Assembly (NCBI RefSeq): GCF_900167535.1
Contig: NZ_FUYE01000003.1
Location: 230,414-294,413 of the forward strand
Reading direction: 5' to 3'
DNA from: Prosthecobacter debontii
GTDB taxonomy: Bacteria; Verrucomicrobiota; Verrucomicrobiia; Verrucomicrobiales; Verrucomicrobiaceae
Length of the DNA stretch: 64,000 nt
Numbering within the stretch: the stretch's first letter is position 1; every line of letters starts with the position of its first letter. The notes under the pieces are model-generated. The model was not told the origin of the DNA, made no database searches, and worked only from the letters and a program-made list of their open reading frames with translations. The translations under genes were made by a program, and so were the position numbers. Below, one piece after another: positions 20,810-37,582 of the stretch.

Positions 20810-20824
20810 TCCTCGACATCCATT

Positions 20825-21993: not shown

Positions 21994-22025
21994 AGGAAGT
22001 CAGGCTACCACCTCATCTCTTGGGG

Positions 22026-23448: not shown

Positions 23449-23478
23449 ATTATAGCAAGTCCATCATTCTCGGATTAA
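23449..23478 (-). promoter_or_regulatory. Promoter of the replication/transfer operon
   Basis: Read on the minus strand, TTAATC (23478-23473) and a perfect TATAAT (23454-23449) are 18 bp apart. The -35 box overlaps the very end of the HIT-family gene. Transcription toward lower coordinates would leave a leader of about 150 nt before the ATPase ATG at 23291. Confidence 0.5.
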
Positions 23479-23919: not shown

Positions 23920-24343
23920 AGGGGTGTAGGCTTGCGGGAAGATGCAGCAAGTTCGCCAACATGCCACTGAGTTGAGGCTGCGATGAAATCAGTCACGCCT
24001 ATGGCCATCCCTCGTTCAGCAGTCGTGGGCCGGTAGTTACCCCGTCGTACACCCTTCGTTAAGGGTAGTTGAACCGGTTGTTGAAAATCCACCCGCCATG
24101 TGGGTGAACCCGTCAGAGGCAGGGGGTGGGCTTTGCCCGACTGCTGCCGCACCTCGTGAGTGGAACCCTCGTTTAGCTGGCCGGTGGTCGCGCTCATTGG
24201 ATCGGTTGCGAGTGAGCGTAGGTGGGCCAGCGGGCGGAGCGGTCGAACAATGAGCCGATGTGCGCGTGGGTAGGCGGCAGGAGAACCAGTCGTGAAAAGC
24301 CGTGGTCCCGCCACAGGCGGGAACCCGTCGTAAAAACTAGTTC

Positions 24344-24474
24344 CCCATGTGTCGTGACCGCGTCGCGGCCCGACTTGCCGCTGCTTGGCGATGACGGGGA
24401 TCGTGTTCGTCCCCGGCTCGCCCGATAGCCGCTAGGAAGCAGCGGCAAGTCGGGCCGTGAGGCCGACACATGGG
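24344..24474. repeat. Long imperfect inverted repeat (131 bp) upstream of the recombinase gene
   Basis: The left arm 24344-24386 and right arm 24437-24474 are reverse complements over an outer 11 bp (CCCATGTGTCG/CGACACATGGG) and an inner 21 bp (24366-24386 with 24437-24457), separated by an unmatched 11 against 6 bases. The loop is 50 bases. No target duplication flanks it. It could be a hairpin used as single-stranded DNA, a recombination site, or a miniature transposon remnant. Confidence 0.8.
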
Positions 24475-24524
24475 AAGTAGAAATCCTCTTGTTTTACAAG
24501 GGAATGGCGCTGCTGAGCGCCGTC

Positions 24525-24557
24525 GCCACCCCGACATACCGTGGTTGTCGGGGTGGC
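24525..24557. repeat. Perfect 12-bp inverted repeat
   Basis: GCCACCCCGACA at 24525-24536 pairs exactly with TGTCGGGGTGGC at 24546-24557 across a 9-base loop. No T-run follows on either strand, so it is not a classical terminator. Confidence 0.75.
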
Positions 24558-24783
24558 GTCATGGGCAGGGCAAATGCCCGCCGTCTTCGGCGGTGCTTTG
24601 ACAGCGGGGGAGAAGGTACGCTTCACTGCCTTCCGGCCTCCGGGCCGAACATTGACAATCCACTCTTAATGTAGTGGAAAAGAGATAGACCCAGGTATCC
24701 TGGTGAGCGGTCTTTGGCCCGCGCACTTCGGCAATCAGACGGGAGAACTCCCGGAGGTTACTTACACGCCTAACAAGGCAACT

Positions 24784-25746
24784 ATGTATCTGACGAAGCG
24801 TCGGCCCCACCTGCGAGGGTTTGGGCCGGTTGAAAGCGCCTTCGTTCGTGAAGGCGAAGACAACGAAACCCTTATCAGTTCATACCTGGAGTGGAAGCGC
24901 AGCTACGCGCCTCGCGCGTCGCAAACATACGCGATCTGGGTACGCCGGTTCCAGGAACAGATAGACAAAGCGCCCGAGGACATCGTGGTTGGCGATTGGG
25001 TCGCCTACGCTCGAAGCCTTGAGGGGCGCTTTGCTCCGAAGTCAGTGGAGTATGCGTTGAACATTGCCCACAACTACCTGCGCTTTTGGCAAGAGCAGGG
25101 AAGGCTTCGGAGGATGCCATTGTACCTCGCCCGTGTGGGCAGGGCGATGGCCTGCTCGCACCGGGCAATCGAGGAGCAGGAGTATCGCCGGATGGTGAAC
25201 GCTCTTCAGACGGAGGGCGAAAAGTCCCTCCGTGATCTGGCTGTCGTGATGCTGCTTCACGACACCGGGATGCGGGTCGGCGAACTCGTGCAGCTTGAGA
25301 TCGACCAGATTGAAGAGGATGCGTCCGCGACGATTCGGACCGAGAAGACGGTTCAGAGGCGACGCGTTTTCTGGAATCGCGGGACAGACGAGGTTCTGCA
25401 CCGGCTCATTGTCGCGCGGATCAACTCGCACGCACCGACTGACTGGCTGCTCGTGGAAAAGTCCGGCAACGGTGAGCAGCCGCTCACGACGCGCACGGTG
25501 CAGCGGATCATCCAGCGAGCCAGCAAGCTCGCCGGGATCGATGGGCATGTTTCCCCGCATTCGTTTCGCCACGCCTTCATCCACCGGCTGGCGAAGCTAG
25601 GGACGCCCGATGCGATCATCGCGCAGCTCGTGGGACACAGCACGCCCTACACCATCGCGCACTACACCAAGCTGTCCCGCCCGGAGTTTTCAGACTTCGC
25701 GCGGCGGCAATTCGCGACGGCTGATGAGCTGGCGCTGGCGGCTTGA
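24784..25746 (+). CDS. Tyrosine recombinase/integrase (XerC/D-like)
   Basis: A 320-residue recombinase. An N-terminal SAM-like core-binding domain (SSYLEWKRSYAPRASQTYAI) is followed by the catalytic domain with the full set of residues: Arg in TGMRVGELV (about residue 163), HSFRH (about 259-263), GHSTPYTIAHYTK with the second His and the nucleophile Tyr (about 284-295). Such enzymes integrate elements or resolve dimers. It lies about 12.8 kb from the comM junction, which is unusual for an integrase acting at that end, so it may instead resolve multimers at the adjacent repeat region. The start is uncertain: GTG at 24703 adds 27 residues; ATG at 24784 leaves the domain intact. Confidence 0.9.
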   Translation: MYLTKRRPHLRGFGPVESAFVREGEDNETLISSYLEWKRSYAPRASQTYAIWVRRFQEQIDKAPEDIVVGDWVAYARSLEGRFAPKSVEYALNIAHNYLRFWQEQGRLRRMPLYLARVGRAMACSHRAIEEQEYRRMVNALQTEGEKSLRDLAVVMLLHDTGMRVGELVQLEIDQIEEDASATIRTEKTVQRRRVFWNRGTDEVLHRLIVARINSHAPTDWLLVEKSGNGEQPLTTRTVQRIIQRASKLAGIDGHVSPHSFRHAFIHRLAKLGTPDAIIAQLVGHSTPYTIAHYTKLSRPEFSDFARRQFATADELALAA

Positions 25747-25756
25747 GCTGCCCTGC

Positions 25757-25785
25757 TTGTACGATGGGGGAGAGGGGGCTATAAT
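25757..25785 (+). promoter_or_regulatory. Promoter for the structured RNA candidate
   Basis: TTGTAC (25757-25762) and a perfect TATAAT (25780-25785) with 17-bp spacing. The -10 box lies within a near-palindrome GGGGCTATAATAGTCCCC (25776-25793 region), which could be a repressor site. The predicted start is near 25792, with no gene for over 300 bp downstream. Confidence 0.6.
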
Positions 25786-25901
25786 AGTCCCCAGCTCCTT
25801 CCTACTCACAGGAACGGTCCGGTCTCGTGTCCAGCGCCGACGGCGCAAAGACTTACACGCGAGACGACTCGCTGCGCAAAATTGTTTTGATTTACGGGGG
25901 C

Positions 25902-25910
25902 TGTGGATAA
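25902..25910 (-). promoter_or_regulatory. Perfect DnaA box
   Basis: TGTGGATAA on the plus strand is the exact complement of the strong DnaA box TTATCCACA. It falls in a region just upstream of a replisome-organiser-like gene, and a variant box (TGTGGAAAA, 28127-28135) occurs 2.2 kb downstream. A single box can be chance. Confidence 0.45.
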
Positions 25911-25989
25911 CGCCCCCTCCTTCTAGGGGGCATTGTGTCGCACAATACCACTTGTCGGAAGTCAAGACAGACCACTCCAGCGCGCGAGA

Positions 25990-26019
25990 GGGCCGTTCCT
26001 ATGAAGGAGCGGCCCTTTT
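25990..26019 (+). terminator. Rho-independent terminator
   Basis: An 11-bp stem (GGGCCGTTCCT/AGGAGCGGCCC with one G-T pair), 4-base loop ATGA, followed by TTTT. It ends the candidate RNA that begins near 25792. Confidence 0.75.
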
Positions 26020-26024
26020 GCGTC

Positions 26025-26076
26025 GGGGAGCCTGGCGGCACTGAAAGATACGGGAGAGACCGCCGCCAGGCTCCCC
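26025..26076. repeat. Perfect 15-bp inverted repeat, possible origin or transfer site
   Basis: GGGGAGCCTGGCGGC (26025-26039) pairs exactly with GCCGCCAGGCTCCCC (26062-26076) across 22 bases. It follows the terminator at 25990-26019 and has no T-run of its own. Inverted repeats of this size flank nick sites in transfer origins and also bind replication initiators; neither can be proved here. Confidence 0.7.
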
Positions 26077-26125
26077 GGCACAACCGGGGGACAGGTCGAG
26101 CATTACCCGCCCTAACTCCTCGCCC

Positions 26126-26317
26126 ATGCGCAAGCGTCAGGAACTCGAATACGTGCCCGTCGGCCAGGATCAGGCGCAGCGGCCACACAAAAAAAGTGGC
26201 TTCCTCATTCGGCTGCTGCGGCTGATTTTTCAAGGCTTCACGGAACCATGCCCGTGCTCGAACTGCCGCTTGTCGAGGGGTGAGGAGGTAGCGGAACAGC
26301 AGGTTATCAAGTTCTGA
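26126..26317 (+). CDS. Possible small Cys-containing protein (63 aa)
   Basis: A 63-residue frame with a basic N-terminus, a hydrophobic helix (GFLIRLLRLIFQGF) and a CPCSNC motif that could bind metal. It follows the inverted repeat at 26025-26076 and precedes the replisome-organiser-like gene on the same strand. No clear ribosome-binding site is seen, so it may be chance. Confidence 0.3.
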   Translation: MRKRQELEYVPVGQDQAQRPHKKSGFLIRLLRLIFQGFTEPCPCSNCRLSRGEEVAEQQVIKF

Positions 26318-26428
26318 TCACTGGCCCGCACCGCGCTTCTTTCGCGGCGCACTGGCGGACGGCGCACGCGCCCCCGCTGGTCGAAAGTGGAAAGCGCACC
26401 AAGGCGCGGGCACTAGCAAACAAGCTTT

Positions 26429-27043
26429 ATGGCGAAGAGACGAGTCGTGGATACCCGCTTCTGGGATGATTCCTACATCGCCCAGTTGAGTCCGAACGCG
26501 AAGCTTCTGTTCCTCTACCTCCTCACGAATCCCTTGACCAACTGCGGGGGTGTTTACGAAATCGCGGTGAAGCGAATCGTGCTCGATACCGGCTTCACCG
26601 CCCGCGAGGTCAGCGCCCAGCTAGACCGGCTGGAGTCTGACGAAAAGATCGTGCGCCGTGGGAACTGGATCGGGATTGTGAACTTCACCCGATACCAGAC
26701 GCTCAACCCATCCGTGCGGCAGGGGATTGCCACCAGTTGGGCGAACGCCCCCGCCGAGATCATCGAGAAGCTGAGGATGCCAGCGGTCGCTCAGGCTCTT
26801 TTACCGGCCTCGCACAGGCTGGTCAGAGGCTCCGACAGACTGCCCGACTTAACCAAAACAAAAAAGAATCTGAACCTGAACGGCGCGGCGGGAGACGGGG
26901 CGGCATTGAACCAAGCAACTCCGAAAGGGGAAAGCCAGCCGGGAGCCGTCTCGCTCTCCGAATGGCTTCGACGCCGACGGTGGACGAATGACGATGAGCC
27001 GTGGAGGGGGCGCGGCTCTGACGGGGACAGCCGAGGGCGCTGA
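26429..27043 (+). CDS. Replisome-organiser-like winged-helix protein
   Basis: A 204-residue protein. Residues 1-110 (TRFWDDSYIAQLSPNAKLLF, then a helix-turn-helix around FTAREVSAQLDRL and a strand pair with WIGIVNFTRYQ) match the N-terminal domain of phage and plasmid replication-initiation or replisome-organiser proteins. The C-terminal 90 residues are disordered, rich in Arg, Gly, Lys and Asn. Proteins of this type bind the origin, often inside or beside their own gene, and load the helicase. The long non-coding stretch just upstream, with a DnaA box, fits that. The assignment rests on the N-terminal pattern and context. Confidence 0.7.
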   Translation: MAKRRVVDTRFWDDSYIAQLSPNAKLLFLYLLTNPLTNCGGVYEIAVKRIVLDTGFTAREVSAQLDRLESDEKIVRRGNWIGIVNFTRYQTLNPSVRQGIATSWANAPAEIIEKLRMPAVAQALLPASHRLVRGSDRLPDLTKTKKNLNLNGAAGDGAALNQATPKGESQPGAVSLSEWLRRRRWTNDDEPWRGRGSDGDSRGR

Positions 27044-27129
27044 GAAGGGCTGGTGGTCGGCGCGAAGCCCATCTCGCCGAATGAGGCGGGCTTCATCTGA
27101 CCATCAAACCCAAGAAGAAGCTCATTCAT

Positions 27130-28077
27130 ATGAATACGAAAACCGCCCTGGCGCTTGATAGCGCCGACACGAGGAGTGGCCGGACCGATCCCTACCAACT
27201 CGTCACGGAAACCATCCTCAAGCATCTGGAAAATGGCGTTGTCCCCTGGCATCGGCCTTGGCGGCGCGAGACGGGCAAGCCTCGCAACTACGAGACGGGC
27301 CGGTGCTACCGAGGCGTGAACCTGCTACTGCTGGGCATGTCCGGCTTTGCCTCGCCGTTCTGGCTCACCTACCGGCAGGTGCAGGCTCTCGGCGGAACCG
27401 TCCGCAAGGGGGAGCACGGCTCGATGGTGGTCAACTGGGGCAAGTTCACACCTGGCAGCGAAGACACGGACGATCAGGCCAAACGACAAAACCAGAGATC
27501 GCGCTACTACCTCCGAAGGTATGTGGTCTTCAACACGGTGCAGACCGAGGGAATTAAGTTTGAGCCGCCCGAGGCTCCGGCTTCATTACCAGAATCAGCG
27601 CGTATCGCCTCCGCAGAGCAAATCGTGGCCGACATGCCGAACCGTCCAGTCATCATGGAAGGGCGTCGGGATTCGGCGTTCTACAGGCATTACACCGACA
27701 CGGTTCACATGCCAGCTTTCGGCTCGTTCGAGAGCGCGGAGAGCTACCACCTCACGCTCTTCCACGAGCTGATTCACGCCACCGGGCATCAGTCTCGCCT
27801 GAATCGAAAGACGCTCACTGAGAGCGATGGGTTCGGCGGCAAGGTTTACTCGCAGGAGGAGCTGGTCGCCGAGATCGGCGCGGCCTACCTCGGGATGGAG
27901 GCGGGTATCGTGCCGGATGAGCACGCGCAGTCCGCCGCCTACATTCAGTGCTGGCTCGAAGCGTTGCGCGAGCCGGACCACAGGCGGTGGTTGGTGATCG
28001 CTGCGAGCCAAGCCGCGAAAGCCACCGACTTCGTGCTCGGCACCCATACCACGGTGTTCGAGGAAGCCGAGGCATGA
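27130..28077 (+). CDS. ardC: ArdC-family antirestriction protein (ssDNA-binding domain plus zinc protease)
   Basis: A 315-residue protein with the ArdC layout: an N-terminal ssDNA-binding domain (ETILKHLENGVVPWHRPW onward, to about residue 115) and a C-terminal zincin-like metallopeptidase domain with HELIHATGH at about 212-220 and a downstream ELVAEIGAAYLG glutamate. ArdC proteins are delivered with or made soon after entry of conjugative DNA and protect it from restriction. Here it travels with a type III system, which is notable because the element both carries restriction and guards against it. A strong terminator follows at once, so the fibre gene has its own promoter. Confidence 0.88.
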   Translation: MNTKTALALDSADTRSGRTDPYQLVTETILKHLENGVVPWHRPWRRETGKPRNYETGRCYRGVNLLLLGMSGFASPFWLTYRQVQALGGTVRKGEHGSMVVNWGKFTPGSEDTDDQAKRQNQRSRYYLRRYVVFNTVQTEGIKFEPPEAPASLPESARIASAEQIVADMPNRPVIMEGRRDSAFYRHYTDTVHMPAFGSFESAESYHLTLFHELIHATGHQSRLNRKTLTESDGFGGKVYSQEELVAEIGAAYLGMEAGIVPDEHAQSAAYIQCWLEALREPDHRRWLVIAASQAAKATDFVLGTHTTVFEEAEA

Positions 28078-28083
28078 CCATCA

Positions 28084-28115
28084 CCTCCCGAGTCTGTCGG
28101 GAGGTTTTCTTTTTT
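28084..28115 (+). terminator. Rho-independent terminator after ardC
   Basis: A perfect 8-bp stem CCTCCCGA/TCGGGAGG with loop GTCTG, followed by TTTTCTTTTTT. It separates ardC from the fibre gene. Confidence 0.9.
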
Positions 28116-28187
28116 GCTTCGTTGCCTGTGGAAAATCACAGAGTCTGTCATTTCAGCAACGCTCGCTCCTGTGGGATAATTCGCCGC

Positions 28188-31100
28188 ATGGGGCTTGCCA
28201 AGTTCGCGACGGTTGCGCTAGTCGCGCTGGCAGCGCTCGCGCCTGCGGCTACGGTCCTTCAGGGAGACCAAGCGACGAGGGAGCGCCTAGCTCAAATTTC
28301 AGCTGTCGCGTTCGGGAGCCGGAACGCCGCTGCCGCTGCTGAGGCTCTCGAATTGCGCTGCGGCTGGCTCGACTGGCTCTGGTGGGGTTGTGAGGTTGAG
28401 ACGCCTGTAGTCACGCCTCCGCCGGAATCGGAACCTCCAGAAGTCGTCGAGGTCGTCTCGACGGGTGTCCCCGCCGAATATGCCGTAACCGAGCACGTCA
28501 TCGAACGCATCGTGGTTCGCGAGGAACCCGCCGACCAAAGTGCCCTCCTGTCGCTGCTGGAGCGCGTCGGCCTGCTTGAGGCTGAGATCGGCGATTTCGA
28601 GGGTAGCTACCAGCCCGCCCGCGACTACTCGCCGAAGTCGGCGGCCCGGTCCCGAGAGCGGGAGCGGGAGCGTACCGACGAGTCCATCGTCACGGCTATC
28701 TCAAGCGGCTCGTCTGACGCCTCGCTCAACTCGCTCGCCGTGAGCGGCGGTGCCACATCGACCTTCGCGAACGGCCTCGACATCGACGAGGGCTGCTACG
28801 CCATCAACGGCGTGTGCGTCGGGGCGGGCATCGTCTCGTCGCAGTGGGACAGCGTCCCGGGCGGCCTGAGCTACGTGGGCGGCAACGTTGGGATCGGGAC
28901 GACAAGTCCCTCTGTTGCCTTTGTGGTAACAGGCGAGTCGCACCTCGCTACGACAACCATCAGCGGCGGCCTAACCGTCATTGGCAATACGACCATCACT
29001 CAGGGCGGGCAGCTAACCGTCGGCGACAAGATCATTGCCCCGGGCGAAATTGGCCTGGGAACCACGTCCCCCTCCGCGAAGCTCGCGATACAGAGTACGG
29101 ATCCTAGCCAGACGGCGTTCCTTCTCCAGTCAACGCCAGGTCAGGTGAATCCGCTTATCGACGTCTTCGGCAACTCAAACACCAGCTTCTTCCGTTTGAC
29201 TGCTGGCGGACACGTGGGAATCGGCACCTCGACCCCGACCCAGGCGCTTGCCGTCCAGGGTGATGCGCACGTATCGGGCACGATGACCGTCGGGGCGCTC
29301 AACTCCTCGGGGGTATTGAGCGTCGGCGGCAACTTGCGCCTCGTGTCGTCGGGAACGGACTCGAACCGCTTGGTGTTTGGCAACTCTGTGGGCGAAGACA
29401 GCATCCGGCTGCGTGGCTACGGGGGCGAGCGGGGCTGGGTCTTCACCGTTGGGGGCAGCGACGCCTACTACTTTAACCAGGACGGCGGCTTCCAGGCGGC
29501 TGAGGTGTCCGCGAACGAAGGCACCTTCGGCCAGCTCACGGTCTCTGGTGGCACCGCGCTTAACGTCAACGAGTCTGGCGGCTTGGCGCGCATCAAGTTC
29601 CAGAACCCGAGCGCCGCAGATACGTGGTACCTGGGTACGCGCTCATCCACTGGGGACAACTTCAACTTCGAGACAGGGGCAGGCCAGCTCCTCTCGATCA
29701 CGACGGCGGGTAGTGTCGGTATCGGAACAACGACGCCGTCCCAAAGACTCACCGTCGCTGGCAACCAGAACCTCACCGGCTACCTTTCGTTCGATGACAA
29801 CATCGACATCAGGCCTGCCGGGCTTTCGACGGGAGGGTACGGAAACACCCTGATTGGCATAGGGAACAGCGTCGCCAACAGCACGGCCAGCGTTGCCGTC
29901 GGGAGCGGCAACACCGTCAACGGCTTCTTGAGCTTCGCGTTCGGGCGAGGCAATACGATTGGAGCCACCTCGTACTCAGGAGCTTACGGGCTTAACAACT
30001 CCGTCGGTCAATCAAATGCTTTCGCCTTTGGTCAGGGCATCACAAACAATACGCTGAACTCTGTGATGATCGGGCCTTCCGATACGGCGAAAATGACCAT
30101 CCTTTCGAGTGGCAACGTGGGTATCGGCACGGCAACGCCTGGCGCGAAGCTTGATGTTGCGGGTGGCGCGGCGACGACCGCCGTCAGCGGGCTGCGCGTG
30201 AGCCAGACATGGAACAGCTCAGGCACGACATTCCCTGGAGCACTGGTAGTCGATGTGACAAACACAGCCAGCGCGGACCAGTCGAAGCTCGTGGATGTGA
30301 GCTACAACGGTACTAGCGCGTTTTCGGTGCTGCGCGACGCGACCTGGGGCAACACTTTCTCCCTGCCAGGGCATGGCAGCATCGGGGGCGTCAATTTCCT
30401 TTTTGGCCAAATTTCTGGAGTTGGGAAGCTCGATGGTGCCAGCGGCGCCTACAGGATCTTAGACACCGGCGACGGCTCTGGTGCAATTCAATTGGCGCAG
30501 AGCACCCCGGTCACGTGGGGAGCGCCATATTATGCGCCCGATACGGGTCTGAGCCGAAGCGCAGCCGGAGTCCTAAAGGTGACAGACGGGGCATCAGGAT
30601 TAGGCACCTTGGTCGTCGGCAACATCGGCATTGGCACCACCTCTCCTTTCGCAAAGCTATCTGTTGTCGGCAGCGGATACTTTGACGGGAATGTCAACGC
30701 CACGGGTCCCCTGAGCGTGAGAAGTTCTTCCGAGGGAAGCACCAACTACACGATCTATTCTCAAAATTCCACGTACGATAGGAAAATAGGATTTGTGTGG
30801 GATGCGGGAGGAGCATCGGCTGGCATCAATACTGATTCGGGATTGAGCCTGTATGCAGGTAGCGGAATCACACTTAGCCCAAGCGCTGGAGCAACTTATG
30901 TTAATAGCAACTTGGGTGTGTATGCTCACGGTGGAGTCGGATCGCCCGCGTCAAGACTATCTGTAAATGGTAACGCAGCAATCGGAAGCTCATATTTTCA
31001 AACCGCCGCACCTACAAATGGTTTAATTGTGGAGGGAAATGTCGGTATCGGTTCCACGACTCCTGGGGCGAAGCTCACTGTTGTCACCGCGAATGGTACG

Positions 31101-32258
31101 GCAACGAACCAGCAGTTTTCCATCGGCAACGGAAATGGCAGCGACTACTACATCGGCAGGGATGGGGTTACGAACGGCCACCTAGTTTTTTCGGGCGGGC
31201 TCGCCGGACAAGCTGGCTACGACTTTAACGGTCCCGTGACCTCAAATGGCGCTACCCTCATCTCGCAGGGCGTCCCAGGGTTAATGGTTGGAAATGTGGG
31301 GGGGCTGGCAGCGCCAGCTCAAGGAATCAGAATTGCAGGTAGCGCTGATGGCACGTTTGACTACACAATTGCGCGGGAGTCGAACGCCACGGGAAACCTG
31401 CAATTTGTGGGGACTAACGCAGGTCAAACGGCGTACGTTTTCTTCAACGGCGCGTCTGAAATATTCCGTGTTGCGGGTTCCGGTTCCGTTTACTCGGCGA
31501 CGCTCGGTGGCGGCGCAACTAACGTTACGGTGGACGCCAACGGCAACCTCATCCGCGATCCGTCCGATGCGAATCTCAAGGAGAACGTCGAGGCCGTGTC
31601 CTCTGCCGAGGCACTCGAAAAAGTTCTCACCCTGCGCGGCGTGACCTTCGACTGGCGCGACCAAGAGAAGTACGGCCCGCAGCGCGAGCTCGGCTTCATC
31701 GCCCAGGAGGTTCAGGCGGTCATCCCCGAGGCGGTTTCGGATGGCGGCGACTACCTCTCGCTGTCGGTCAAGCCAATCGTCGCGGCGCTCGTTGAGGCGC
31801 TCAAGGCGGTGTGGGCGGTGGTAGAAGACCTCGTGGCCAAAGTGGAGGGTCTGGCGACGCTAGTGAAGACCCAGCGCACCGAGACCGAAACCCTCTGCGT
31901 CGGCGAGACCTGCATCACCGAAGCCGAGCTGCAGATTCTGCTGCGCGACGCAGACGTTCCCGAGAGCGCTCCCCGTGAAGATGGTCCGTCGGATGCGGAA
32001 CCCGAAGAAGGATCGGACGAGGAGCCCTTGGACTCCGGAGAGCAGCCGGTTTCTGACAACGAGGCCGATGACGGCAGCGGCGAGGAGTCCAGCGGAGATG
32101 CTCCGCCGGAAGCGTCTGTTGGTGACGAGGAAGAAAGCCCGGCTGAGGTGCCCTCTGAAGGCGACCCAGAGCCCGCTGGTGACGGTGATGCCGCCAGCGA
32201 GGAGTCTGCTCCTGCCGACGATGGCGCGTCTGGGGACGATGCCCCGGCGGCAGAGTAG
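28188..32258 (+). CDS. Large secreted fibre protein with GIGTTSP repeats and C-terminal S74 chaperone domain
   Basis: A 1356-residue protein. A signal peptide (GLAKFATVALVALAALAPAA) is followed by a proline/glutamate-rich segment and an Arg-Glu stretch. The long middle has seven copies of a G-x-V-G-I-G-T-T-S-P-x-x-K-L type repeat and, between them, a YadA-head-like patch (SVAVGSGNTVNGFLSFAFG). A peptidase S74 domain begins near residue 1124 (DANLKENVEAV, later RELGFIAQEVQAVIPEA); S74 domains trimerise fibres and cut themselves off. The last 100 residues are an acidic Ser/Pro tail. The ATG at 28188 is used since the longer frame runs back through ardC and the terminator. The fibre may act in adhesion or mating contact. 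Bases 30.72-31.07 kb are AT-richer than the rest. Confidence 0.85.
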   Translation: MGLAKFATVALVALAALAPAATVLQGDQATRERLAQISAVAFGSRNAAAAAEALELRCGWLDWLWWGCEVETPVVTPPPESEPPEVVEVVSTGVPAEYAVTEHVIERIVVREEPADQSALLSLLERVGLLEAEIGDFEGSYQPARDYSPKSAARSRERERERTDESIVTAISSGSSDASLNSLAVSGGATSTFANGLDIDEGCYAINGVCVGAGIVSSQWDSVPGGLSYVGGNVGIGTTSPSVAFVVTGESHLATTTISGGLTVIGNTTITQGGQLTVGDKIIAPGEIGLGTTSPSAKLAIQSTDPSQTAFLLQSTPGQVNPLIDVFGNSNTSFFRLTAGGHVGIGTSTPTQALAVQGDAHVSGTMTVGALNSSGVLSVGGNLRLVSSGTDSNRLVFGNSVGEDSIRLRGYGGERGWVFTVGGSDAYYFNQDGGFQAAEVSANEGTFGQLTVSGGTALNVNESGGLARIKFQNPSAADTWYLGTRSSTGDNFNFETGAGQLLSITTAGSVGIGTTTPSQRLTVAGNQNLTGYLSFDDNIDIRPAGLSTGGYGNTLIGIGNSVANSTASVAVGSGNTVNGFLSFAFGRGNTIGATSYSGAYGLNNSVGQSNAFAFGQGITNNTLNSVMIGPSDTAKMTILSSGNVGIGTATPGAKLDVAGGAATTAVSGLRVSQTWNSSGTTFPGALVVDVTNTASADQSKLVDVSYNGTSAFSVLRDATWGNTFSLPGHGSIGGVNFLFGQISGVGKLDGASGAYRILDTGDGSGAIQLAQSTPVTWGAPYYAPDTGLSRSAAGVLKVTDGASGLGTLVVGNIGIGTTSPFAKLSVVGSGYFDGNVNATGPLSVRSSSEGSTNYTIYSQNSTYDRKIGFVWDAGGASAGINTDSGLSLYAGSGITLSPSAGATYVNSNLGVYAHGGVGSPASRLSVNGNAAIGSSYFQTAAPTNGLIVEGNVGIGSTTPGAKLTVVTANGTATNQQFSIGNGNGSDYYIGRDGVTNGHLVFSGGLAGQAGYDFNGPVTSNGATLISQGVPGLMVGNVGGLAAPAQGIRIAGSADGTFDYTIARESNATGNLQFVGTNAGQTAYVFFNGASEIFRVAGSGSVYSATLGGGATNVTVDANGNLIRDPSDANLKENVEAVSSAEALEKVLTLRGVTFDWRDQEKYGPQRELGFIAQEVQAVIPEAVSDGGDYLSLSVKPIVAALVEALKAVWAVVEDLVAKVEGLATLVKTQRTETETLCVGETCITEAELQILLRDADVPESAPREDGPSDAEPEEGSDEEPLDSGEQPVSDNEADDGSGEESSGDAPPEASVGDEEESPAEVPSEGDPEPAGDGDAASEESAPADDGASGDDAPAAE

Positions 32259-32303
32259 GCGGCAGGAGTCTTCTGCTCGGGTCGGTGCCCTGCTCTGCTT
32301 GGG

Positions 32304-33080
32304 CTAGCTGAGTCTGGCGACCAGATTCGGGATTCGGTAGAGGTCAGACTGGCGAACCGTGCAGTTAAAACCGAGAGTCGCGAGATCGGCGCGGTGCGCG
32401 GCGACGGCGGAATCTTCCAGTCTCGGATCGAGCACGATCTCGTCAAAGAGCAAGAGCGGGTCGAGCGGGTAGAAAAACCGGTCTTCAGCGCTGCTGCGCT
32501 TGTTTGGGCTAAGGTAAATCAAGCGCACCTCGCTCTCGTGCGAGAACGCGAGGCGCTTGAGGAGCAAGGTCTTGCACTGGTTCACCCCGGAGGTGTCGAA
32601 CGCGGCCGCGTTAACAAACTTTGGGTCGGTTATCGAGGCGCGGATAGCATCCTCAGAATGGTACGAGACTTTTCCGATGAAGCAGGATATGTCCCGGAAC
32701 TTGCCCTCGCTCTTGTAGAGGCCGGACAGAAGCTTTCGCGGCGTGCAGCGAACCCGGACGCCGTCTTTCTCGTGGCTGTAGATTCGCCACATCGCGTCGG
32801 TTTCCTCGGCGTCGGTCCAGCATTGGCCGTAGAGGTCGTCTCGCATCCCGAAACCGATGCGGTTCCCGTGCTCGTCGAGGGCGGTGGCCGAGAACAGGAA
32901 GTTCTCGAAGGGGTCGTCCCAAAGCTTGGTGCGGACGAGGCAGTTTTTCTTGCCTGTGGCCATTTCACGCAGCCGCGCGAACGGCATGAAGCGGTAGATA
33001 GGCGCGTCGATCTTCGACTGGTCGTCCCAGTTGAGGAAGTTGTTGGATGGTGGTCTAGAGGTCGTGTTTTTCGTGCTCAT
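32304..33080 (-). CDS. DUF2971 family protein
   Basis: A 258-residue soluble protein. The N-terminal YRFMPFARLREMATG, then KLWDDPFENFLF, CWTDAEETDAMWRIYS and a late SHESEVRLIYLSP are the signature blocks of DUF2971. Proteins of this family are widespread on mobile elements and in defence islands; their activity is not established to my knowledge. The gene is convergent with the fibre gene and stands alone, 92 bp from the divergent nuclease gene. Confidence 0.85.
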   Translation of the reverse strand: MSTKNTTSRPPSNNFLNWDDQSKIDAPIYRFMPFARLREMATGKKNCLVRTKLWDDPFENFLFSATALDEHGNRIGFGMRDDLYGQCWTDAEETDAMWRIYSHEKDGVRVRCTPRKLLSGLYKSEGKFRDISCFIGKVSYHSEDAIRASITDPKFVNAAAFDTSGVNQCKTLLLKRLAFSHESEVRLIYLSPNKRSSAEDRFFYPLDPLLLFDEIVLDPRLEDSAVAAHRADLATLGFNCTVRQSDLYRIPNLVARLS

Positions 33081-33172
33081 GTATGTATTTAGTCTCCAGC
33101 CGCGAAAAAATAATCGGCGACGGTGAAATTTCTTTCTGGCGGGTCAATCGGTCGGTGTGAAAGTGGGCTGTC

Positions 33173-33661
33173 GTGGTTCAATTTCACAATTTCGGCCTAC
33201 TGCTCGTCGCGGCCTGGATGTCGGTCGGGCTAGGCCTGACCGGCTTGGAAGCCAGCGAAATCACAGGGAAGGTGGTCGGCGTGCACGACGGCGACTCGCT
33301 CACGCTCCTCACGCCAGACAAAACGCAGATCAAGGTCCGGCTCGAAGGCATCGACGCGCCCGAGCTGAAGCAGCCGTTCGGGGCAGCCTCCAAGAAGGCG
33401 CTCTCCGACTTGGTGTTTGGTAAGACTGTGCGGCTGGAGGAAACCGGGAAGGACCGCTACAGGCGGACGCTCGGGAACATCTTCGTCGGCGATGTCTGGG
33501 TGAACCTCGCCATGGTCGAGAGGGGAATGGCGTGGTTCTTCGTGAAGTACAGCAAAGAGGCCACGCTCGAATCAGCAGAGATCAAAGCCCGCAAGATGCG
33601 ATTGGGTCTGTGGGGCGGCAAAGACCAGACCGCCCCGTGGGAATGGAGGAAGAGCAAGTAG
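33173..33661 (+). CDS. Secreted thermonuclease-like (SNase) protein
   Basis: A 162-residue nuclease with an N-terminal signal segment (LLLVAAWMSVGLGLTGLEAS) and a staphylococcal-nuclease fold. Family residues are visible: VHDGDSLTL, RLEGIDAPE with the catalytic Arg and Asp, DRYRRTLG, and a late ARKMRLGLW. It should cut DNA or RNA outside the cytoplasm with calcium. The GTG at 33173 is the best start. It converges on the ubiquitin-like operon. Such nucleases are frequent in conjugative elements, where they may trim DNA at the cell surface. Confidence 0.85.
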   Translation: MVQFHNFGLLLVAAWMSVGLGLTGLEASEITGKVVGVHDGDSLTLLTPDKTQIKVRLEGIDAPELKQPFGAASKKALSDLVFGKTVRLEETGKDRYRRTLGNIFVGDVWVNLAMVERGMAWFFVKYSKEATLESAEIKARKMRLGLWGGKDQTAPWEWRKSK

Positions 33662-33673
33662 CTCAGGGGAGCG

Positions 33674-35008
33674 TCACAGCCTCTTGAAAACCGGGTCGCC
33701 TGATGCGTCCAGAGGGTAATGGCTGCATGGGATGGTCTTTAGAAGCGGCAGGAGGTTTGATGGCGAGAGCGTCGCGGTGGAGCCTCGGTAGTCGAGTCTT
33801 GCGTGCGGCGCTTTGCCGGACCAGCCGGTCAACAGTTGCACCGCATAGCCGACTGCGGCAGACGCGAGAATGCCGTTCGGCCACACGACTTGCGGTTGCT
33901 TGCCCGCGCCGTAGCCCTGCGCCTCCTCGGCCAGGTTTTCCGGTGTGAGCACGCGAAGGCAGTGCAGGCACGACTCGCCGGGCAACGAAAGGGCGACCTG
34001 ACCGCTGATTTCGTTTCGGTCGGGCAGCACCATCATTCCAATGTCTATGAGCGGAATCTGGTGGGAGCGGCAAAACGCCTCCAAGTCGCGTCTGGCGCGA
34101 AATGAATCCAGGCAGCCGAAGACGATGTCGCATTCTCGCAACTGCTCGCGCTTTTCCTCCCACGAGGCGGGCGCATCGCTGAGCACAGCAGACGAGTGGA
34201 GCGCCTTGATGAGGCGCGCTGCGATAGCGGTCTTGTGCCTGCGCTTGATCGCGTCGCGCATCGTTGCCCCGATGAGCCTGTTGAGGTTGGTCTTCTCGGT
34301 CCGGTCATCGTCGCAGAGGACCAGGTTGAGAAACCCGATATGTGCTAGCTGCTGGCATACATGAGAGCCGCCCCCGCCAAGGCCAACGACTCCAATGCGT
34401 GCTTTCGAGAAAATGGCTTGAGAGTCTTCGCCGAGGAAACTCTGCCGGTCATAGTCAACGGCCTCAAATGGCCTCAAGAAGTCTAGAAATCCGCGCTTCC
34501 GTGGCGGCGGAGAACGGTCTGGGAGGAGCATCGGAAACCCGACAACCGAGAAGTCTTGGATTGGGGCAATGCTCGAACCCGGCGCAATCACTTCGCCGCA
34601 CATTCCGTCCTCAGAGAGCACCGCCCACCCGTGAAATGATGAGGCGTGCGCGTTGGCCAAACTCTGTGCGACTCGCGGCCCCTCCCGGCAATCGACGGCG
34701 CTCGCCACCGGGACCCCACTTCGCCCGTGCGTGTGAACCCAGAGCTGGCCGACACCTCCTCCAATGGATCTCCCCATTGCCTGTCTGATTGCCTCTCCGC
34801 CAATCCTTCCCCCGCAGTGAGGGTCGCGGATGTAGAGGTCGTCGGCAATCTCGTGGTAATCCGTGGCAAGCAGGACGGTGTGGTTGTTCCGGGTTGACCT
34901 GCGGAGCGAAAAGAAGCCAAGCCTTTCGTGCGCGAAAGGGTGGGGGCGCTCAAGGTCGTCTAAGCCTTTGGCGAGCAGACTGCGTGATATCTTGAGGGTC
35001 ACTTTCAT
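33674..35008 (-). CDS. JAB deubiquitinase-like/E1 activating enzyme fusion
   Basis: A 444-residue two-domain protein. The N-terminal JAB/JAMM peptidase domain has an early Glu in HERLGFF and the metal site HTHGRSGVPVASAVD (about residues 91-105), that is H-x-H, then eight residues, then S-x2-D, one more than the classical seven. The C-terminal ThiF/E1 domain (about 195-444) has the nucleotide loop GVVGLGGGGSH, the DDDRTEKTNLNRL metal/ATP region, and CLHC, one zinc or active-site cysteine pair. E1 would adenylate the C-terminal glycine of the ubiquitin-like protein encoded two genes upstream; JAB would trim its tail or remove it from targets. Its ATG overlaps the E2-like stop (ATGA). Confidence 0.88.
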   Translation of the reverse strand: MKVTLKISRSLLAKGLDDLERPHPFAHERLGFFSLRRSTRNNHTVLLATDYHEIADDLYIRDPHCGGRIGGEAIRQAMGRSIGGGVGQLWVHTHGRSGVPVASAVDCREGPRVAQSLANAHASSFHGWAVLSEDGMCGEVIAPGSSIAPIQDFSVVGFPMLLPDRSPPPRKRGFLDFLRPFEAVDYDRQSFLGEDSQAIFSKARIGVVGLGGGGSHVCQQLAHIGFLNLVLCDDDRTEKTNLNRLIGATMRDAIKRRHKTAIAARLIKALHSSAVLSDAPASWEEKREQLRECDIVFGCLDSFRARRDLEAFCRSHQIPLIDIGMMVLPDRNEISGQVALSLPGESCLHCLRVLTPENLAEEAQGYGAGKQPQVVWPNGILASAAVGYAVQLLTGWSGKAPHARLDYRGSTATLSPSNLLPLLKTIPCSHYPLDASGDPVFKRL

Positions 35009-35349
35009 TCACGGAATGCGGCCAGATGATCAATCACCATCTGCGCAAGGCTTAGCCCTGCCTTTGTTTTCCAGGAGACAGCCCACCATGTTTGACCCAG
35101 AATATGGCTCCCGGTGTTTGGGTTCCAGTTGGTGCCCTTCCCTCTGTGCGCGACTTTTTGGTCCAAGAACAGGCGCGACGGATAGCCGTCACGGTCATGG
35201 GGGCAAAGCAGCACTTTCACCTCACGCGGCTGGCAGTGCTCAGGGAGCGTGAACTGTTCGATGAGAACAAATTCGACGCCGCCTTCCGAGGCCAACGACA
35301 GGTTTGGAAAGAGAGCCTTAAGCTCTGCGATCTGTTGGGCGTCGGGCAT
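35005..35349 (-). CDS. Prokaryotic E2-like (UBC fold) protein
   Basis: A 114-residue protein matching the small bacterial E2-like family encoded beside multiubiquitin and JAB-E1 genes. The pattern LKALFPNLSLASEGGVEFVLIE, then EVKVLLCPHDRDGYPSRLF and HILGQTWWAVSW fits a reduced UBC fold. C in LLCPHDRDGYP is the only cysteine in a central position besides LPEHCQP, so it is the candidate for thioester formation, but I cannot confirm it is the catalytic one. The ATG at 35349 is 2 bp after the ubiquitin-like stop; the longer frame overlaps that gene. It would pass the modifier from E1 to a target. Confidence 0.8.
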   Translation of the reverse strand: MPDAQQIAELKALFPNLSLASEGGVEFVLIEQFTLPEHCQPREVKVLLCPHDRDGYPSRLFLDQKVAHRGKGTNWNPNTGSHILGQTWWAVSWKTKAGLSLAQMVIDHLAAFRE

Positions 35350-35351
35350 TG

Positions 35352-35609
35352 TCAGCTCGCTCCTCCGCTGGGGCAGTGGCTCGCGAAAACCTCGCCGCCC
35401 TTGATGTCGATGCGAGCGTTGTGGTCGAGCGGTTTGAGTTCGGTGCCAACGAGTTGGCACAGGACATCGCTTTGGGGAATGTTGGGATTCGGGATCGTCT
35501 TGATCTGCGCCACCGGGTGGATTCCGGGCCGCACCTCGTAGGGGGTGTTGTTGATCGTAATGGTGACCTTTTCGGGGCCGCGATTGTCGGGTTTATCTTC
35601 TGGTTTCAT
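35352..35609 (-). CDS. Ubiquitin-like modifier (multiubiquitin family, single domain) ending GGAS
   Basis: An 85-residue protein with one beta-grasp domain (KVTITINNTPYEVRPG, then QSDVLCQLVG and ARIDIKGGEVFASH) of the multiubiquitin family. The C-terminus is SGGAS: a di-glycine followed by two residues. By analogy with eukaryotic ubiquitin precursors, a peptidase must remove AS before the glycine can be activated, and the JAB domain encoded in the same operon is the obvious candidate. The gene is followed 2 bp later by the E2-like gene and preceded 39 bp upstream by a DUF2188 gene. Confidence 0.85.
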   Translation of the reverse strand: MKPEDKPDNRGPEKVTITINNTPYEVRPGIHPVAQIKTIPNPNIPQSDVLCQLVGTELKPLDHNARIDIKGGEVFASHCPSGGAS

Positions 35610-35648
35610 AAATGCTTGTCTTGAGGTTTCAGGAGGTTGGATTGTGGA

Positions 35649-35882
35649 TTAGCCAATCGGCGGACACTGATCCGGGCCGTAGGTGTTTCGCTCGCGGATT
35701 TGGCCGTTCTTCGCGTGGATGAACATCTCGCTTTTCTGGTTTTGAGCGATGGTCCGTGCGGCACCGATAGCTGCCGTTTGCGTCGTGTGACGCGAAGTCA
35801 CGCGTTCGCTGCCTTCTGCTCTGACTGCCCAGGCCCCCTTGTGAGGGACCACATGCTGATTGTTGGACTGCTTCGGGTTCAT
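35649..35882 (-). CDS. DUF2188 protein
   Basis: A 77-residue protein with the full DUF2188 pattern: HVVPHKGAWAVRAEGSERVT, a helix TQTAAIGAARTIAQNQ, and EMFIHAKNGQIRERNTYG. Small stand-alone DUF2188 proteins are common but their role is unknown. It is the first gene of the ubiquitin-like operon, preceded by an A-rich leader and the shared regulatory region with the XRE gene. It might be the target of modification or a DNA-binding partner; neither is shown by the sequence. Confidence 0.85.
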   Translation of the reverse strand: MNPKQSNNQHVVPHKGAWAVRAEGSERVTSRHTTQTAAIGAARTIAQNQKSEMFIHAKNGQIRERNTYGPDQCPPIG

Positions 35883-35925
35883 TTTTTTCTTGTAGGGGAT
35901 GGGGTTTGGTGTCTTTATTGCGTTC

Positions 35926-35940
35926 GTGAAATCGTTTCAC
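35926..35940. promoter_or_regulatory. Palindromic operator candidate 1
   Basis: GTGAAATCGTTTCAC is a perfect palindrome around a 3-base centre in the divergent region between the DUF2188/ubiquitin-like operon and the XRE/ImmA pair. Its half-site resembles that of the second dyad at 35984-35997. Confidence 0.6.
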
Positions 35941-35983
35941 TGGTATTACATATAGACTCCCCGTGAAGGCGTGCAAGGATTTT

Positions 35984-35997
35984 TTTCATCAATGAAA
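35984..35997. promoter_or_regulatory. Palindromic operator candidate 2
   Basis: TTTCATCAATGAAA is a perfect dyad 22 bases before the XRE gene ATG (36019), with further GTTTC-like half-sites near it. Together with the dyad at 35926 it is a likely binding site of the XRE repressor. Confidence 0.6.
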
Positions 35998-36018
35998 CAC
36001 ATTCACTAAAGAAACAAA

Positions 36019-36387
36019 ATGGCAGAATCACACGAAATCGACCTGAAGAAGCTGGCGGCACTAGTATCAAGAAAGCGAGGCGGGCGGCCCCTGCGGGATG
36101 TTGCCGCCGAAATTGGCGGTGTCAGCGCACCAACCCTGTCGAGGGTTGAGAAAGGAAATGTCCCCGATGTGGACACCTTCATGCGGCTCTGCCGCTGGCT
36201 GGAAGCTTCCCCTGACGATTTCCAGACACGCGCCTCAGAGCGAACTGTTGGGGCTGAAATCAGTTCTCCAGAACGCATCTGCGCGTTCCTTCGTGCGGAC
36301 AGAACTTTGCAGCCGGACACCGCGAAGGCGCTGGCTACAATGATTGAACTTGCCTACAAGGGGATGAAGGGTGGAGGCATTCAATGA
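36019..36387 (+). CDS. XRE-family transcriptional regulator
   Basis: A 122-residue protein with a helix-turn-helix at about residues 15-60 (LRDVAAEIGGVSAPTLSRVE is the recognition part) and a helical tail. It is followed 6 bp later by an ImmA/IrrE-type metallopeptidase gene. This pair resembles the ImmR/ImmA switch of integrative elements, in which the peptidase destroys the repressor after DNA damage or other signals. It faces the ubiquitin-like operon across a 136-bp region with two palindromes, so it probably represses one or both directions. Confidence 0.88.
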   Translation: MAESHEIDLKKLAALVSRKRGGRPLRDVAAEIGGVSAPTLSRVEKGNVPDVDTFMRLCRWLEASPDDFQTRASERTVGAEISSPERICAFLRADRTLQPDTAKALATMIELAYKGMKGGGIQ

Positions 36388-36393
36388 ACAATC

Positions 36394-36996
36394 ATGTGCG
36401 CGCGACTAGGAATCGATGTGAAACTCAGAATGGGGAGAGGCTTCAAGGCCGATGCTGAAAAGCTCTCTGTTGATGTGCGGGCTGCGCTCAAGCTTCAGCC
36501 GCATGATCGAATTCCTGCGGAGACGCTGGCCGAACGAATGGGATTCCGCGTCATAGAGCCGTCGGCGATTCCAGGACTCTCTGAAGGTCACCTGAAAGTC
36601 CTCACCGGAGACGGCAAAAACAATTGGTCGGCTGTTTTGATCAAAGCGGAAAACGGAGATGGGGGTCTCATCATCAACAATCCGACACACTCGCCTTGCC
36701 GTCGGGAGAGCAACATCTTCCATGAGATCAGCCACGACTTGTGCCAGCACGAGCCAGATGAGGTGATCAACTTGGGCGGCCTCGCTGTCAGGTCATTTTC
36801 TTCAGAAAAGGAGGAACAAGCTGAGAGGCTGGGCTATGCCCTTCACATCTCTCGCGATGCGCTGTTTTGGGCGGCGAAGAGGAAACTGACCCGGAGCGGA
36901 ATCGCTGAACATTTTTGTGCGAGCGAAATCCTCGTTCGGCATCGAATCAACTCGACGGCAGTCGAACGAATCTTAAAAAGGGCCATTCCGACCTGA
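36394..36996 (+). CDS. ImmA/IrrE-family (M78) metallopeptidase
   Basis: A 200-residue protein with the zinc-binding FHEISHDLCQH motif at about residues 108-118 and an N-terminal helix region ending in LAERMGFRV, as in ImmA/IrrE proteins. The later part (EEQAERLGYALHISRDAL onward) supplies the third metal ligand region. The expected substrate is the XRE repressor encoded just upstream. Translation is probably coupled. The pair would make the neighbouring operon inducible. Confidence 0.85.
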   Translation: MCARLGIDVKLRMGRGFKADAEKLSVDVRAALKLQPHDRIPAETLAERMGFRVIEPSAIPGLSEGHLKVLTGDGKNNWSAVLIKAENGDGGLIINNPTHSPCRRESNIFHEISHDLCQHEPDEVINLGGLAVRSFSSEKEEQAERLGYALHISRDALFWAAKRKLTRSGIAEHFCASEILVRHRINSTAVERILKRAIPT

Positions 36997-37036
36997 TGGT
37001 CCTTCTGGGCTGGGAAAGCCTCGCCGAGCGAGCATC

Positions 37037-37582
37037 TCAGGTCGTCTGCGTGCTAAAGAATGGGAAGAGGGCAGCGGCACCGAGAAGAGGGGATTTCAGA
37101 ATCCGTTGTCGAGCTTTCGGACAAGGGCTTGTTTTGCCCGAGAGCCAATTGAAGAGGGTCTTTCGTTCGATTCCAAGTCGAACTGCCAGCAACTCTCGTG
37201 GCAGACCGTGACGCCGCTGGAGGGATGTTAGGGCTTGGTCAAGATTCGTGGGGGCTGGAGTCGGGTCGTAGCCGAGGAACTGGATCACTTTGGGCCATTG
37301 CCAAACTTTCGGCGCAATCCGGTCGGCCTCCCAGCCGTTGTAGGAGGTGAATGTCACCCCGAACCGAGAAGCCGCCTGCTCCTGTGTCTCCCCGAGGTCG
37401 AGGCGGCGCTTCCGAAGGTGCTCCCCAAGTGTCTTGGGGGAGTCTGGGTAGCCTTTCACCCGCTTCTCGTGGGGGCCGAGGCAATGTAGGGGTGCCCGGA
37501 TTGTGGCCCAGAAAAAAGGCAACGTACCCATGCCCTTGTGGCTACTATGGGGATAGCAAACGTGCTTGTCGTTGTGGTTCAC
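37037..37582 (-). CDS. Double helix-turn-helix regulator at the element's right end
   Basis: The frame contains the block PKTLGEHLRKRRLDLGETQEQ with an XRE-type HTH and, nearer the C-terminus, a second HTH (LGIERKTLFNWLSGKTSP). It is read toward the inside of the element. The open frame runs back to 37582, through the comM junction, so the true start is unclear: the ATG at 37582 or 37531 would use chromosomal DNA, and a GTG at 37459 (start of KGYPDSPKTLG) would keep the gene inside the element. It may regulate excision or transfer. Confidence in the gene is good, in the start low. Confidence 0.7.
   Translation of the reverse strand: MNHNDKHVCYPHSSHKGMGTLPFFWATIRAPLHCLGPHEKRVKGYPDSPKTLGEHLRKRRLDLGETQEQAASRFGVTFTSYNGWEADRIAPKVWQWPKVIQFLGYDPTPAPTNLDQALTSLQRRHGLPRELLAVRLGIERKTLFNWLSGKTSPCPKARQRILKSPLLGAAALFPFFSTQTT
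37495..37535. other. Right junction between mobile element and comM
   Basis: From about 37520 the plus strand reads into the comM motif PCPCGYYGD in frame, while upstream bases encode no comM sequence. The residue before the motif is Tyr (TAC) where comM genes usually have Asn, which places the crossover near the CCCATGCCCTTGTGG sequence at 37518-37533. The partner end is outside the window, so no direct repeat can be tested. Confidence 0.65.

What the first reader, a model, noticed from the sequence alone, without database searches (positions are those of the whole stretch)
33674..35882. Ubiquitin-like conjugation operon on a mobile element
DUF2188, a single ubiquitin-like domain, an E2-like protein and a JAB-E1 fusion follow each other with gaps of 39, 2 and -4 bp. 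The modifier ends GGAS, so it needs trimming to expose GG, and the JAB domain is in the same protein as E1. Related operons have recently been tied to antiphage defence. DUF2188 as a member is, to my knowledge, not described as part of such systems.
Basis: partly seen in the sequence, partly recalled or inferred. Interest (0 to 1): 0.8.

Follow-up and report, generated by a model that had tools for sequence, protein, structure and literature searches.

The report
Ubiquitin-like operon with swappable control cassette
A bacterium carries, on an inserted piece of DNA that also holds several virus-defence genes, a small ubiquitin-like protein-tagging operon of a known type, led by an uncharacterised gene (DUF2188) that recurs as the first gene between a similar regulatory switch and different defence operons.

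Summary
In detail: DUF2188 (35649-35882), one ubiquitin-like domain (35352-35609), an E2-like protein (35005-35349) and a JAB-E1 fusion (33674-35008) lie on the minus strand with gaps of 39, 2 and -4 bp. The three-gene core is a Bub operon (type 6e of Iyer 2006): the E1 profile finds Citrobacter BubCD (5.6e-54) and the E2-like model finds BubB first. The E2-like family keeps no cysteine, and phage protection by Bub has not been shown.

What is new lies around the core. DUF2188 leads seven Bub loci that I found, needs at least four changes on an E1 tree, and has an M78 (ImmA/IrrE-type) gene nearby in all seven. Beside HTH-M78 genes it also leads a CBASS operon, an hsdR gene, or stands alone. 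Two operons 91% identical in DNA differ in having the HTH-M78-DUF2188 block or not. So DUF2188 looks like part of an exchangeable control cassette, not of the conjugation enzymes. Against a general rule: most Bub loci read lack DUF2188, and most sampled DUF2188 genes lie beside neither Bub nor M78. Its function is unknown. The operon lies near the right end of a ~39.5 kb element inserted in comM.

The parts
33674..35008 (-). JAB-E1 fusion (BubD-BubC like): JAB about residues 1-165 (JAMM residues E28, H92, H94, S103, D106), E1 about 187-444 with putative zinc ligands C347, C350, C428, H430
35005..35349 (-). E2-like protein (BubB fold), no conserved cysteine; W88, S92, L109 invariant in 26 sequences
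35352..35609 (-). Single ubiquitin-like domain, tail PSGGAS
35649..35882 (-). DUF2188 protein, first gene after the divergent promoter
35926..35940 (.). Palindrome GTGAAATCGTTTCAC, proposed operator, conserved at the same offset in L012
36019..36387 (+). XRE-type HTH gene, proposed repressor
36394..36996 (+). M78 (ImmA/IrrE-type) peptidase gene with HEISH, proposed activator by cleavage of the repressor
1..37530 (.). Part of the ~39.5 kb element inserted in comM that lies in the window; its left end and a serine recombinase gene lie about 2 kb outside the window

Best explanation
The operon is a Bub-type (Iyer 6e) ubiquitin-like conjugation system on a comM-integrated element with other defence genes. 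Proposed working: the HTH protein keeps the divergent promoter shut by binding the GTGAAA-N3-TTTCAC operator; on DNA damage or phage replication the M78 peptidase is activated and cuts the repressor (by analogy with CapH+CapP and PprI-DdrO). DUF2188, Ubl, E2-like and JAB-E1 are then made from one transcript. JAB trims the last two residues of the Ubl tail, E1 adenylates it, and it is passed with the cysteine-less E2-like protein to unknown targets; JAB can also remove it. DUF2188 is not part of this chemistry: it is a small accessory product of a portable HTH-M78 control cassette that is placed before different immune operons. Shown here: anatomy, homology, conservation of tail and JAMM residues, repeated placement of DUF2188, one cassette exchange. 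Inferred: regulation, trimming, conjugation, role in defence or stress.
For: Bub: E1 profile to BubCD 5.6e-54; E2-like model to BubB, probability 1.00, TMq 0.71; gene order as in Iyer 6e. Trimming: 30 of 32 Ubl tails end in two S/A residues; JAMM residues kept. Control: ORF with an M78-type motif within 4.5 kb upstream of E1 in 50 of 87 loci, downstream control 8 of 77; HTH-M78 pairs of the window's family divergent to Bub on pSYSX and pACMV5 and in L233, to an E2-E1-JAB gene in L228 and to a DncV-like cyclase in L234; operator conserved in L012. DUF2188: first before Bub in window, L012, L014, L088, L090, L093, L245, each with an M78 gene nearby (Pfam in six; record annotation in L245); at least 4 changes on the E1 tree; L012 and L013 are 91% identical over 2280 bp from inside the Ubl gene through E1, without a match upstream, and only L012 has HTH-M78-DUF2188; DUF2188 beside HTH-M78 also before CBASS, hsdR and alone.
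Against: The window's M78 protein does not match PADLOC's capP model. DUF2188 is in only 3 of 80 GTDB loci, and the closest relative L032 has Bub with HTH-M78 but without DUF2188. Of 26 DUF2188 matches in 286 genomes of the class only the window's is beside Bub, and 4 of 26 have an M78-type motif within 1.5 kb; 14 of 79 viral ones have it within 2 kb; several plasmid cases have none. In L093 no HTH was found by Pfam beside M78, so the partner varies. No protein, transcript or conjugate has been observed.
Confidence: 0.66

Rival explanations
1. DUF2188 is a true accessory component of this Bub pathway: a substrate adaptor, target or inhibitor of the conjugation enzymes, kept in a minority of Bub operons.
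For: First gene of the operon, 39 bp before the Ubl gene; recruited at least four times to this position, over distant E1 types; far above the background density.
Against: Leads CBASS, hsdR or nothing elsewhere; absent from 77 of 80 GTDB loci and from the closest relative; exchanged together with the regulators.
Confidence: 0.2
2. DUF2188 is an autonomous phage or plasmid gene (for example superinfection exclusion, or a stress gene) that merely settles behind strong regulated promoters; its place before Bub is hitch-hiking.
For: 118 relatives in viral contigs, 460 plasmid records, mostly without Bub or M78 where read; PADLOC lists it as a single-gene candidate (what PDC-S stands for is recalled).
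Against: Same first-gene position beside M78 regulators in several unrelated operons.
Confidence: 0.3
3. The operon is not a conjugation system but moves sulfur or makes a modified peptide with a ThiF-like enzyme.
For: ThiF-family E1; no catalytic cysteine evident in E1 or E2-like.
Against: BubCD and BubB are the closest solved relatives; JAB and E2-like fold kept; no metabolic genes in the operon.
Confidence: 0.06

Closest known systems
Bub (bacterial ubiquitination-like) operons; Citrobacter BubA, BubB, BubCD (PDB 9ea4, 9ea5, 9ea8, 9eae, 9eav)
   Same: JAB-E1 fusion, BubB-fold E2-like protein, Ubl; M78/HTH regulators beside them in many loci
   Different: Single Ubl ending GG-A-S; an E1 of the GGGGSH type about 27-31% identical to the other E1 group of alignment A1; DUF2188 as first gene
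Operon type 6e of Iyer, Burroughs and Aravind 2006 (PMC1779556; part 5 of the text and passages seen)
   Same: JAB fused before E1, Ubl domains, a cysteine-less E2/RWD-like gene between them; a solo Ubl is already noted there for one species
   Different: No metal-binding protein Y found in the window operon; DUF2188 not mentioned there (0 occurrences)
CapH+CapP and PprI-DdrO regulators (PMC13373217 and PMC10904395, passages seen)
   Same: Adjacent HTH and M78-type genes beside an immune operon
   Different: The M78 protein does not match PADLOC capP; activation by ssDNA untested
CapK+CapS followed by YegP in 57 of 443 cases (PMC13373217, passages seen)
   Same: A small protein of unknown function recurring right after a damage-responsive control module
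   Different: DUF2188 not shown to be related to YegP (hhalign probability 0.6%; Z 3.8)
Bil and CBASS type II E1/E2/JAB systems
   Same: E1, E2, JAB logic
   Different: Only partial E1 matches in PADLOC (E1-E2 up to 6.8e-11, BilD 0.0034); no cyclase in this operon

Membership tests
Bub operon | E1 homologous to Citrobacter BubCD | tested here: met
   5.6e-54 with the profile, 4.2e-19 with the single protein
Bub operon | E2-like protein of the BubB fold | tested here: met
   Foldseek first match 9eae_C, probability 1.00, TMq 0.71, but E 0.019; no sequence match to BubB in the PDB
Bub operon | JAB (BubD) with JAMM residues | tested here: met
   E28, H92, H94, S103, D106 conserved in the family alignment; no Pfam JAB match
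Bub operon | Ubl BubA | tested here: inconclusive
   Multi_ubiq E 0.061, no PDB match; place and tail agree with the family; same-place genes in related plasmid operons are annotated multiubiquitin
Bub operon | covalent conjugation of the Ubl | not testable with these tools
   needs biochemistry
Iyer 2006 type 6e | JAB fused before E1, Ubl domains, cysteine-less E2-like gene between them | tested here: met
Iyer 2006 type 6e | metal-binding protein Y (seen in the type; I do not take it as required) | tested here: not met
   the next gene is an opposite-strand SNase gene, 33173-33661; no profile of Y was searched
CapH+CapP regulators | adjacent HTH and M78-type genes beside an immune operon | tested here: met
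CapH+CapP regulators | match of the peptidase to PADLOC capP | tested here: not met
   0 families for the window's M78 protein
CapH+CapP regulators | ssDNA-activated cleavage of the repressor | not testable with these tools
   needs biochemistry
DUF2188 (PF09954) | score over the curated cut-off | tested here: met
   83.8 bits against 22
YegP / DUF1508 | sequence or fold relation of DUF2188 | tested here: inconclusive
   hhalign probability 0.6% on a thin alignment; 2k8e Z 3.8 among many unrelated rows

The most novel reading that the evidence does not exclude
DUF2188 is a general leader gene of damage-controlled immune cassettes: a small protein made first when an M78-type switch opens, which tunes, licenses or resets whatever immune operon follows (Bub, CBASS, type I restriction), and which phages carry as well, perhaps to interfere at the same step. 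It would be a shared part that links immune systems now treated as separate, in parallel to YegP after CapK+CapS.
Probability: 0.22. Interest if true: 0.78.

Novelty: new variant of a known kind. Interest (0 to 1): 0.55.

Why it matters
Bub pathways are recently described and their trigger, targets and purpose are open. A gene recruited at least four times to the same place before Bub operons, and also found before a CBASS operon and an hsdR gene beside the same kind of regulator, points to a step that may be shared and has been overlooked. It is 77 residues long, easy to delete or express, and occurs in named strains (Rhizobium phaseoli S3 plasmid pBS3c for Bub, Paracoccus sediminicola SCSIO 76264 plasmid p2 for CBASS), so the question is directly testable. 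The pair L012/L013, near-identical operons with and without the cassette, is a natural comparison.

Tried and rejected
DUF2188 as a fixed Bub member: not the main reading, because 77 of 80 GTDB loci read lack it and it leads other genes elsewhere. GG as the conserved part of the tail: rejected; GG in 15 of 32, the final two small residues in 30 of 32 (34 rows listed, two dropped: L038, a copy of L027, and L061, not of this type). The LLCP cysteine of the E2-like protein as catalytic: rejected; R, V, Y, W, F or D in other rows. YegP kinship of DUF2188: not shown. DUF2188 fold: no Foldseek match under E 0.001, best Z 4.7 to an anti-CRISPR protein, a level that the tool says may be only a common arrangement; no family is excluded by this. 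Repeats of 12 bp or more at both ends of the element: none found in the stretches compared. Bub in viral contigs: 2 relatives among 137 pattern stretches. Limits: only the best 80 of 396 E1 relatives (itself a capped list) and 80 of 118 viral DUF2188 loci (79 analysed) were read; L038 was left out of the tree as a copy and L066 for its short E1 fragment. The M78 count rests on a short motif, not on a profile, and its 87 loci include E1 genes whose operon was not checked one by one.

Full report
What is there. On the minus strand, 35882 to 33674, four genes follow each other with gaps of 39, 2 and -4 bp: DUF2188 (77 aa), a single ubiquitin-like domain (85 aa, ending PSGGAS), an E2-like protein (114 aa) and a JAB-E1 fusion (444 aa). 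DUF2188 is clear (PF09954 9.5e-24; PADLOC candidate PDC-S16 5.7e-33), as is the ThiF-type E1 domain (5.5e-32). Pfam does not call the JAB part or the E2-like protein, and the Ubl only below its cut-off (Multi_ubiq 0.061).

Core identity. A profile of ten E1 domains finds Citrobacter BubCD first in the PDB at 5.6e-54; the window protein alone finds it at 4.2e-19. The E2-like family (26 sequences) gives a confident model (pLDDT 93) whose first PDB match is Citrobacter BubB (probability 1.00, TMq 0.71, E 0.019), with known E2 enzymes among the weaker rows. The JAMM residues E28, H92, H94, S103 and D106 are conserved in the family. The layout (JAB fused before E1, an E2-like gene without cysteine between Ubl and JAB-E1, Ubl domains in front) is operon type 6e of Iyer and colleagues 2006, who note a solo Ubl in one species (PMC1779556, part 5 and passages read). 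So the core is a Bub/6e operon. The papers on Bub itself (Ye 2026, Gong 2025) and on Bil (Chambers 2024, Hor 2024) are not held; I only recall them, including my recollection that Bub works through oxyester rather than thioester intermediates.

Chemistry suggested by conservation. No cysteine is invariant in the E2-like family; W88, S92 and L109 (numbering of the 114-residue protein; +1) are invariant in 26 rows and H108 nearly so. A W-x3-S pattern also stands in the E2-like domain of L014 (WQRWS), and Citrobacter BubB has YQRWS there. In 38 E1 domains of the window's type the cysteines kept are C293 (36 of 38) and C347, C350 and C428 (37 of 37 each), the last three with H430, which looks like a zinc site. 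An acyl intermediate on serine is therefore more likely than a classical thioester relay; this is inference, helped by the recollection above. Ubl tails: of 32 read, 30 have G four from the end (in L035 by an extra last residue), 30 end in two S/A residues and 15 have GG. Trimming of the last two residues by JAB fits; GG as such is not what is conserved.

Fusion. In four relatives from genomes of the window's class (L012, L013, L027, L028) JAB and E1 are separate neighbouring genes. In the closest relative found, L032 (Opitutaceae, 59% in E1), they are fused and the Ubl is single and also ends in PSGGAS, but there is no DUF2188.

Control. Divergent from DUF2188 lie an XRE-type HTH gene and an M78 (ImmA/IrrE-type) gene with HEISH. 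The 136 bp between hold the palindrome GTGAAATCGTTTCAC at 35926-35940; the matching region of L012 has GTGAAACCATTTCAC at the same offset, and TGAAANNNTTTCA occurs only there in the window. HTH-M78 pairs found with the window's own proteins stand divergent to Bub in Synechocystis pSYSX and Acidiphilium pACMV5 and in L233, to an E2-E1-JAB gene on an Abditibacteriota plasmid (next to a 372-aa gene that looks to me like a metallo-beta-lactamase but has no Pfam match) and to a DncV-like cyclase in L234. An ORF with an M78-type motif lies within 4.5 kb upstream of the E1 gene in 50 of 87 loci with enough sequence, against 8 of 77 downstream. CapH+CapP are published as an ssDNA-activated protease and the repressor it cuts; 219 of 544 Bub operons have CapW or CapH+CapP (PMC13373217, passages; PMC10904395, passages). 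The window's M78 protein misses the PADLOC capP model, so I call it CapP-like in position, not a member.

DUF2188 before Bub. It is the first gene before the Ubl gene in the window, L012, L014, L088, L090, L093 and the annotated Rhizobium phaseoli plasmid pBS3c, whose order is HTH, ImmA, DUF2188, multiubiquitin, E2/UBC, ThiF, DUF6527 on one strand. In L088, L090 and L093 the Ubl gene itself was not called by me; DUF2188 precedes the E2-like and E1 genes. An M78 gene is nearby in all seven: by Pfam in six, by the record's annotation in pBS3c. Among the 80 GTDB loci DUF2188 is in 3. They hold 919,055 bases; at 0.065 DUF2188 per Mb (472 places in 7.3 Gb of plasmids) 0.06 would be expected, at about 0.022 per Mb (26 matches in 286 genomes, taking roughly 1.2 Gb from the sizes shown) 0.02; Poisson P 3e-5 and 1e-6, not corrected for the three being one clade. 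On a tree of 93 E1 domains the label needs 4 changes, forced by well-supported branches: window, L012, L014, and L088-L090-L093; with R. phaseoli added, which falls nearest the last three, still 4.

Cassette rather than component. L012 and L013, both from genomes of the window's genus, are 91% identical over 2280 bp from inside the Ubl gene through E1 and have no match upstream; only L012 has HTH-M78-DUF2188. The window shares this block with L012 (HTH 69%, M78 54%, DUF2188 56% identical), although their E1 domains are 48% identical and sit on separate branches. Elsewhere DUF2188 is the first gene beside an HTH-M78 protein before a CBASS phospholipase and a nucleotidyltransferase on a Paracoccus plasmid, before an hsdR gene in G175, and without an evident partner on Celeribacter pP73B and in G308. 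Against this: 4 of 26 DUF2188 matches of the class sample have an M78-type motif within 1.5 kb, 14 of 79 viral ones within 2 kb, and plasmid cases without one exist. DUF2188 is a widespread mobile gene (118 relatives in viral contigs; 460 plasmid records, 342 of them Klebsiella; 15 phage records), and the Bub-linked ones are a small part of those read. Its model (b-b-b-a-b-b, pLDDT 83.5) has no convincing solved relative. Seven held papers mention DUF2188; by title and start of abstract none concerns such systems.

Where it sits. comM/yifB is split: its first part ends near C3:228446 (AMNP) and the rest resumes in the window near 37530 (CPCGYYGD); a serine recombinase gene (Resolvase 1.1e-33, Recombinase 9.3e-20) lies at the left end. 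The ~39.5 kb between carry a DrmD-like helicase, PDC-S06, type III restriction-modification, a SAVED-HNH effector with a CD-NTase and this operon near the right end. The genome is of the class of G137, whose contig of 138,419 bases matches Puniceicoccaceae record PBYS01000054 in length and E1 operon.

Verdict. The core is a new member of a known kind; DUF2188 as an exchangeable leader gene beside M78-type regulators is a variant of which I found no report in my searches, within a library that lacks the main Bub papers. Function of DUF2188, regulation and conjugation are untested.

Noticed in passing
window 17073-18985: Two-gene CBASS-like unit: SAVED-HNH effector (PADLOC 3.5e-54) followed by a CD-NTase (3.1e-75).
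   Followed up: partly
G000:C3 about 228446 to window about 37530: A ~39.5 kb element with a serine recombinase gene splits comM/yifB in the AMNP|CPCG stretch.
   Followed up: partly
window 6862-17046: DrmD-like helicase, PDC-S06 candidate, type III methylase and restriction enzyme in a row.
   Followed up: no
window 32304-33080: DUF2971 protein with a strong match to PADLOC candidate PDC-S31 (6.7e-81), beyond an opposite-strand SNase gene.
   Followed up: no
L228 5500-6591 and L234 7174-8134: HTH-M78 pairs of the window's family divergent to an E2-E1-JAB gene and to a DncV-like cyclase: a portable control module for several immune operon types.
   Followed up: partly
L241 2299-6958: Paracoccus sediminicola plasmid p2: DUF2188 is the first gene before CBASS genes, behind a divergent HTH-M78 gene and a gene annotated VapC family.
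   Followed up: partly
L114 1883-6227: Spirosoma linguale pSLIN02: a Tn3-family transposase gene lies right before a JAB-E1 gene that lacks the start of its JAB part.
   Followed up: no
L235 7290-8995, L236 7044-8594, L032 1495-3116: An HTH-M78 protein followed by a small gene that may be PIN-like (by eye; no Pfam match for the one in L235), divergent from DUF2188 in L235 and L236 and from Bub without DUF2188 in L032.
   Followed up: partly
G000:C6:140048-140239: A second, weak DUF2188 match in the same genome (4.8e-7).
   Followed up: no
L143-L222: In viral contigs DUF2188 often lies near HTH repressor-like genes: 27 of 79 loci have a member of one such cluster within about 2 kb (HTH by eye).
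   Followed up: partly
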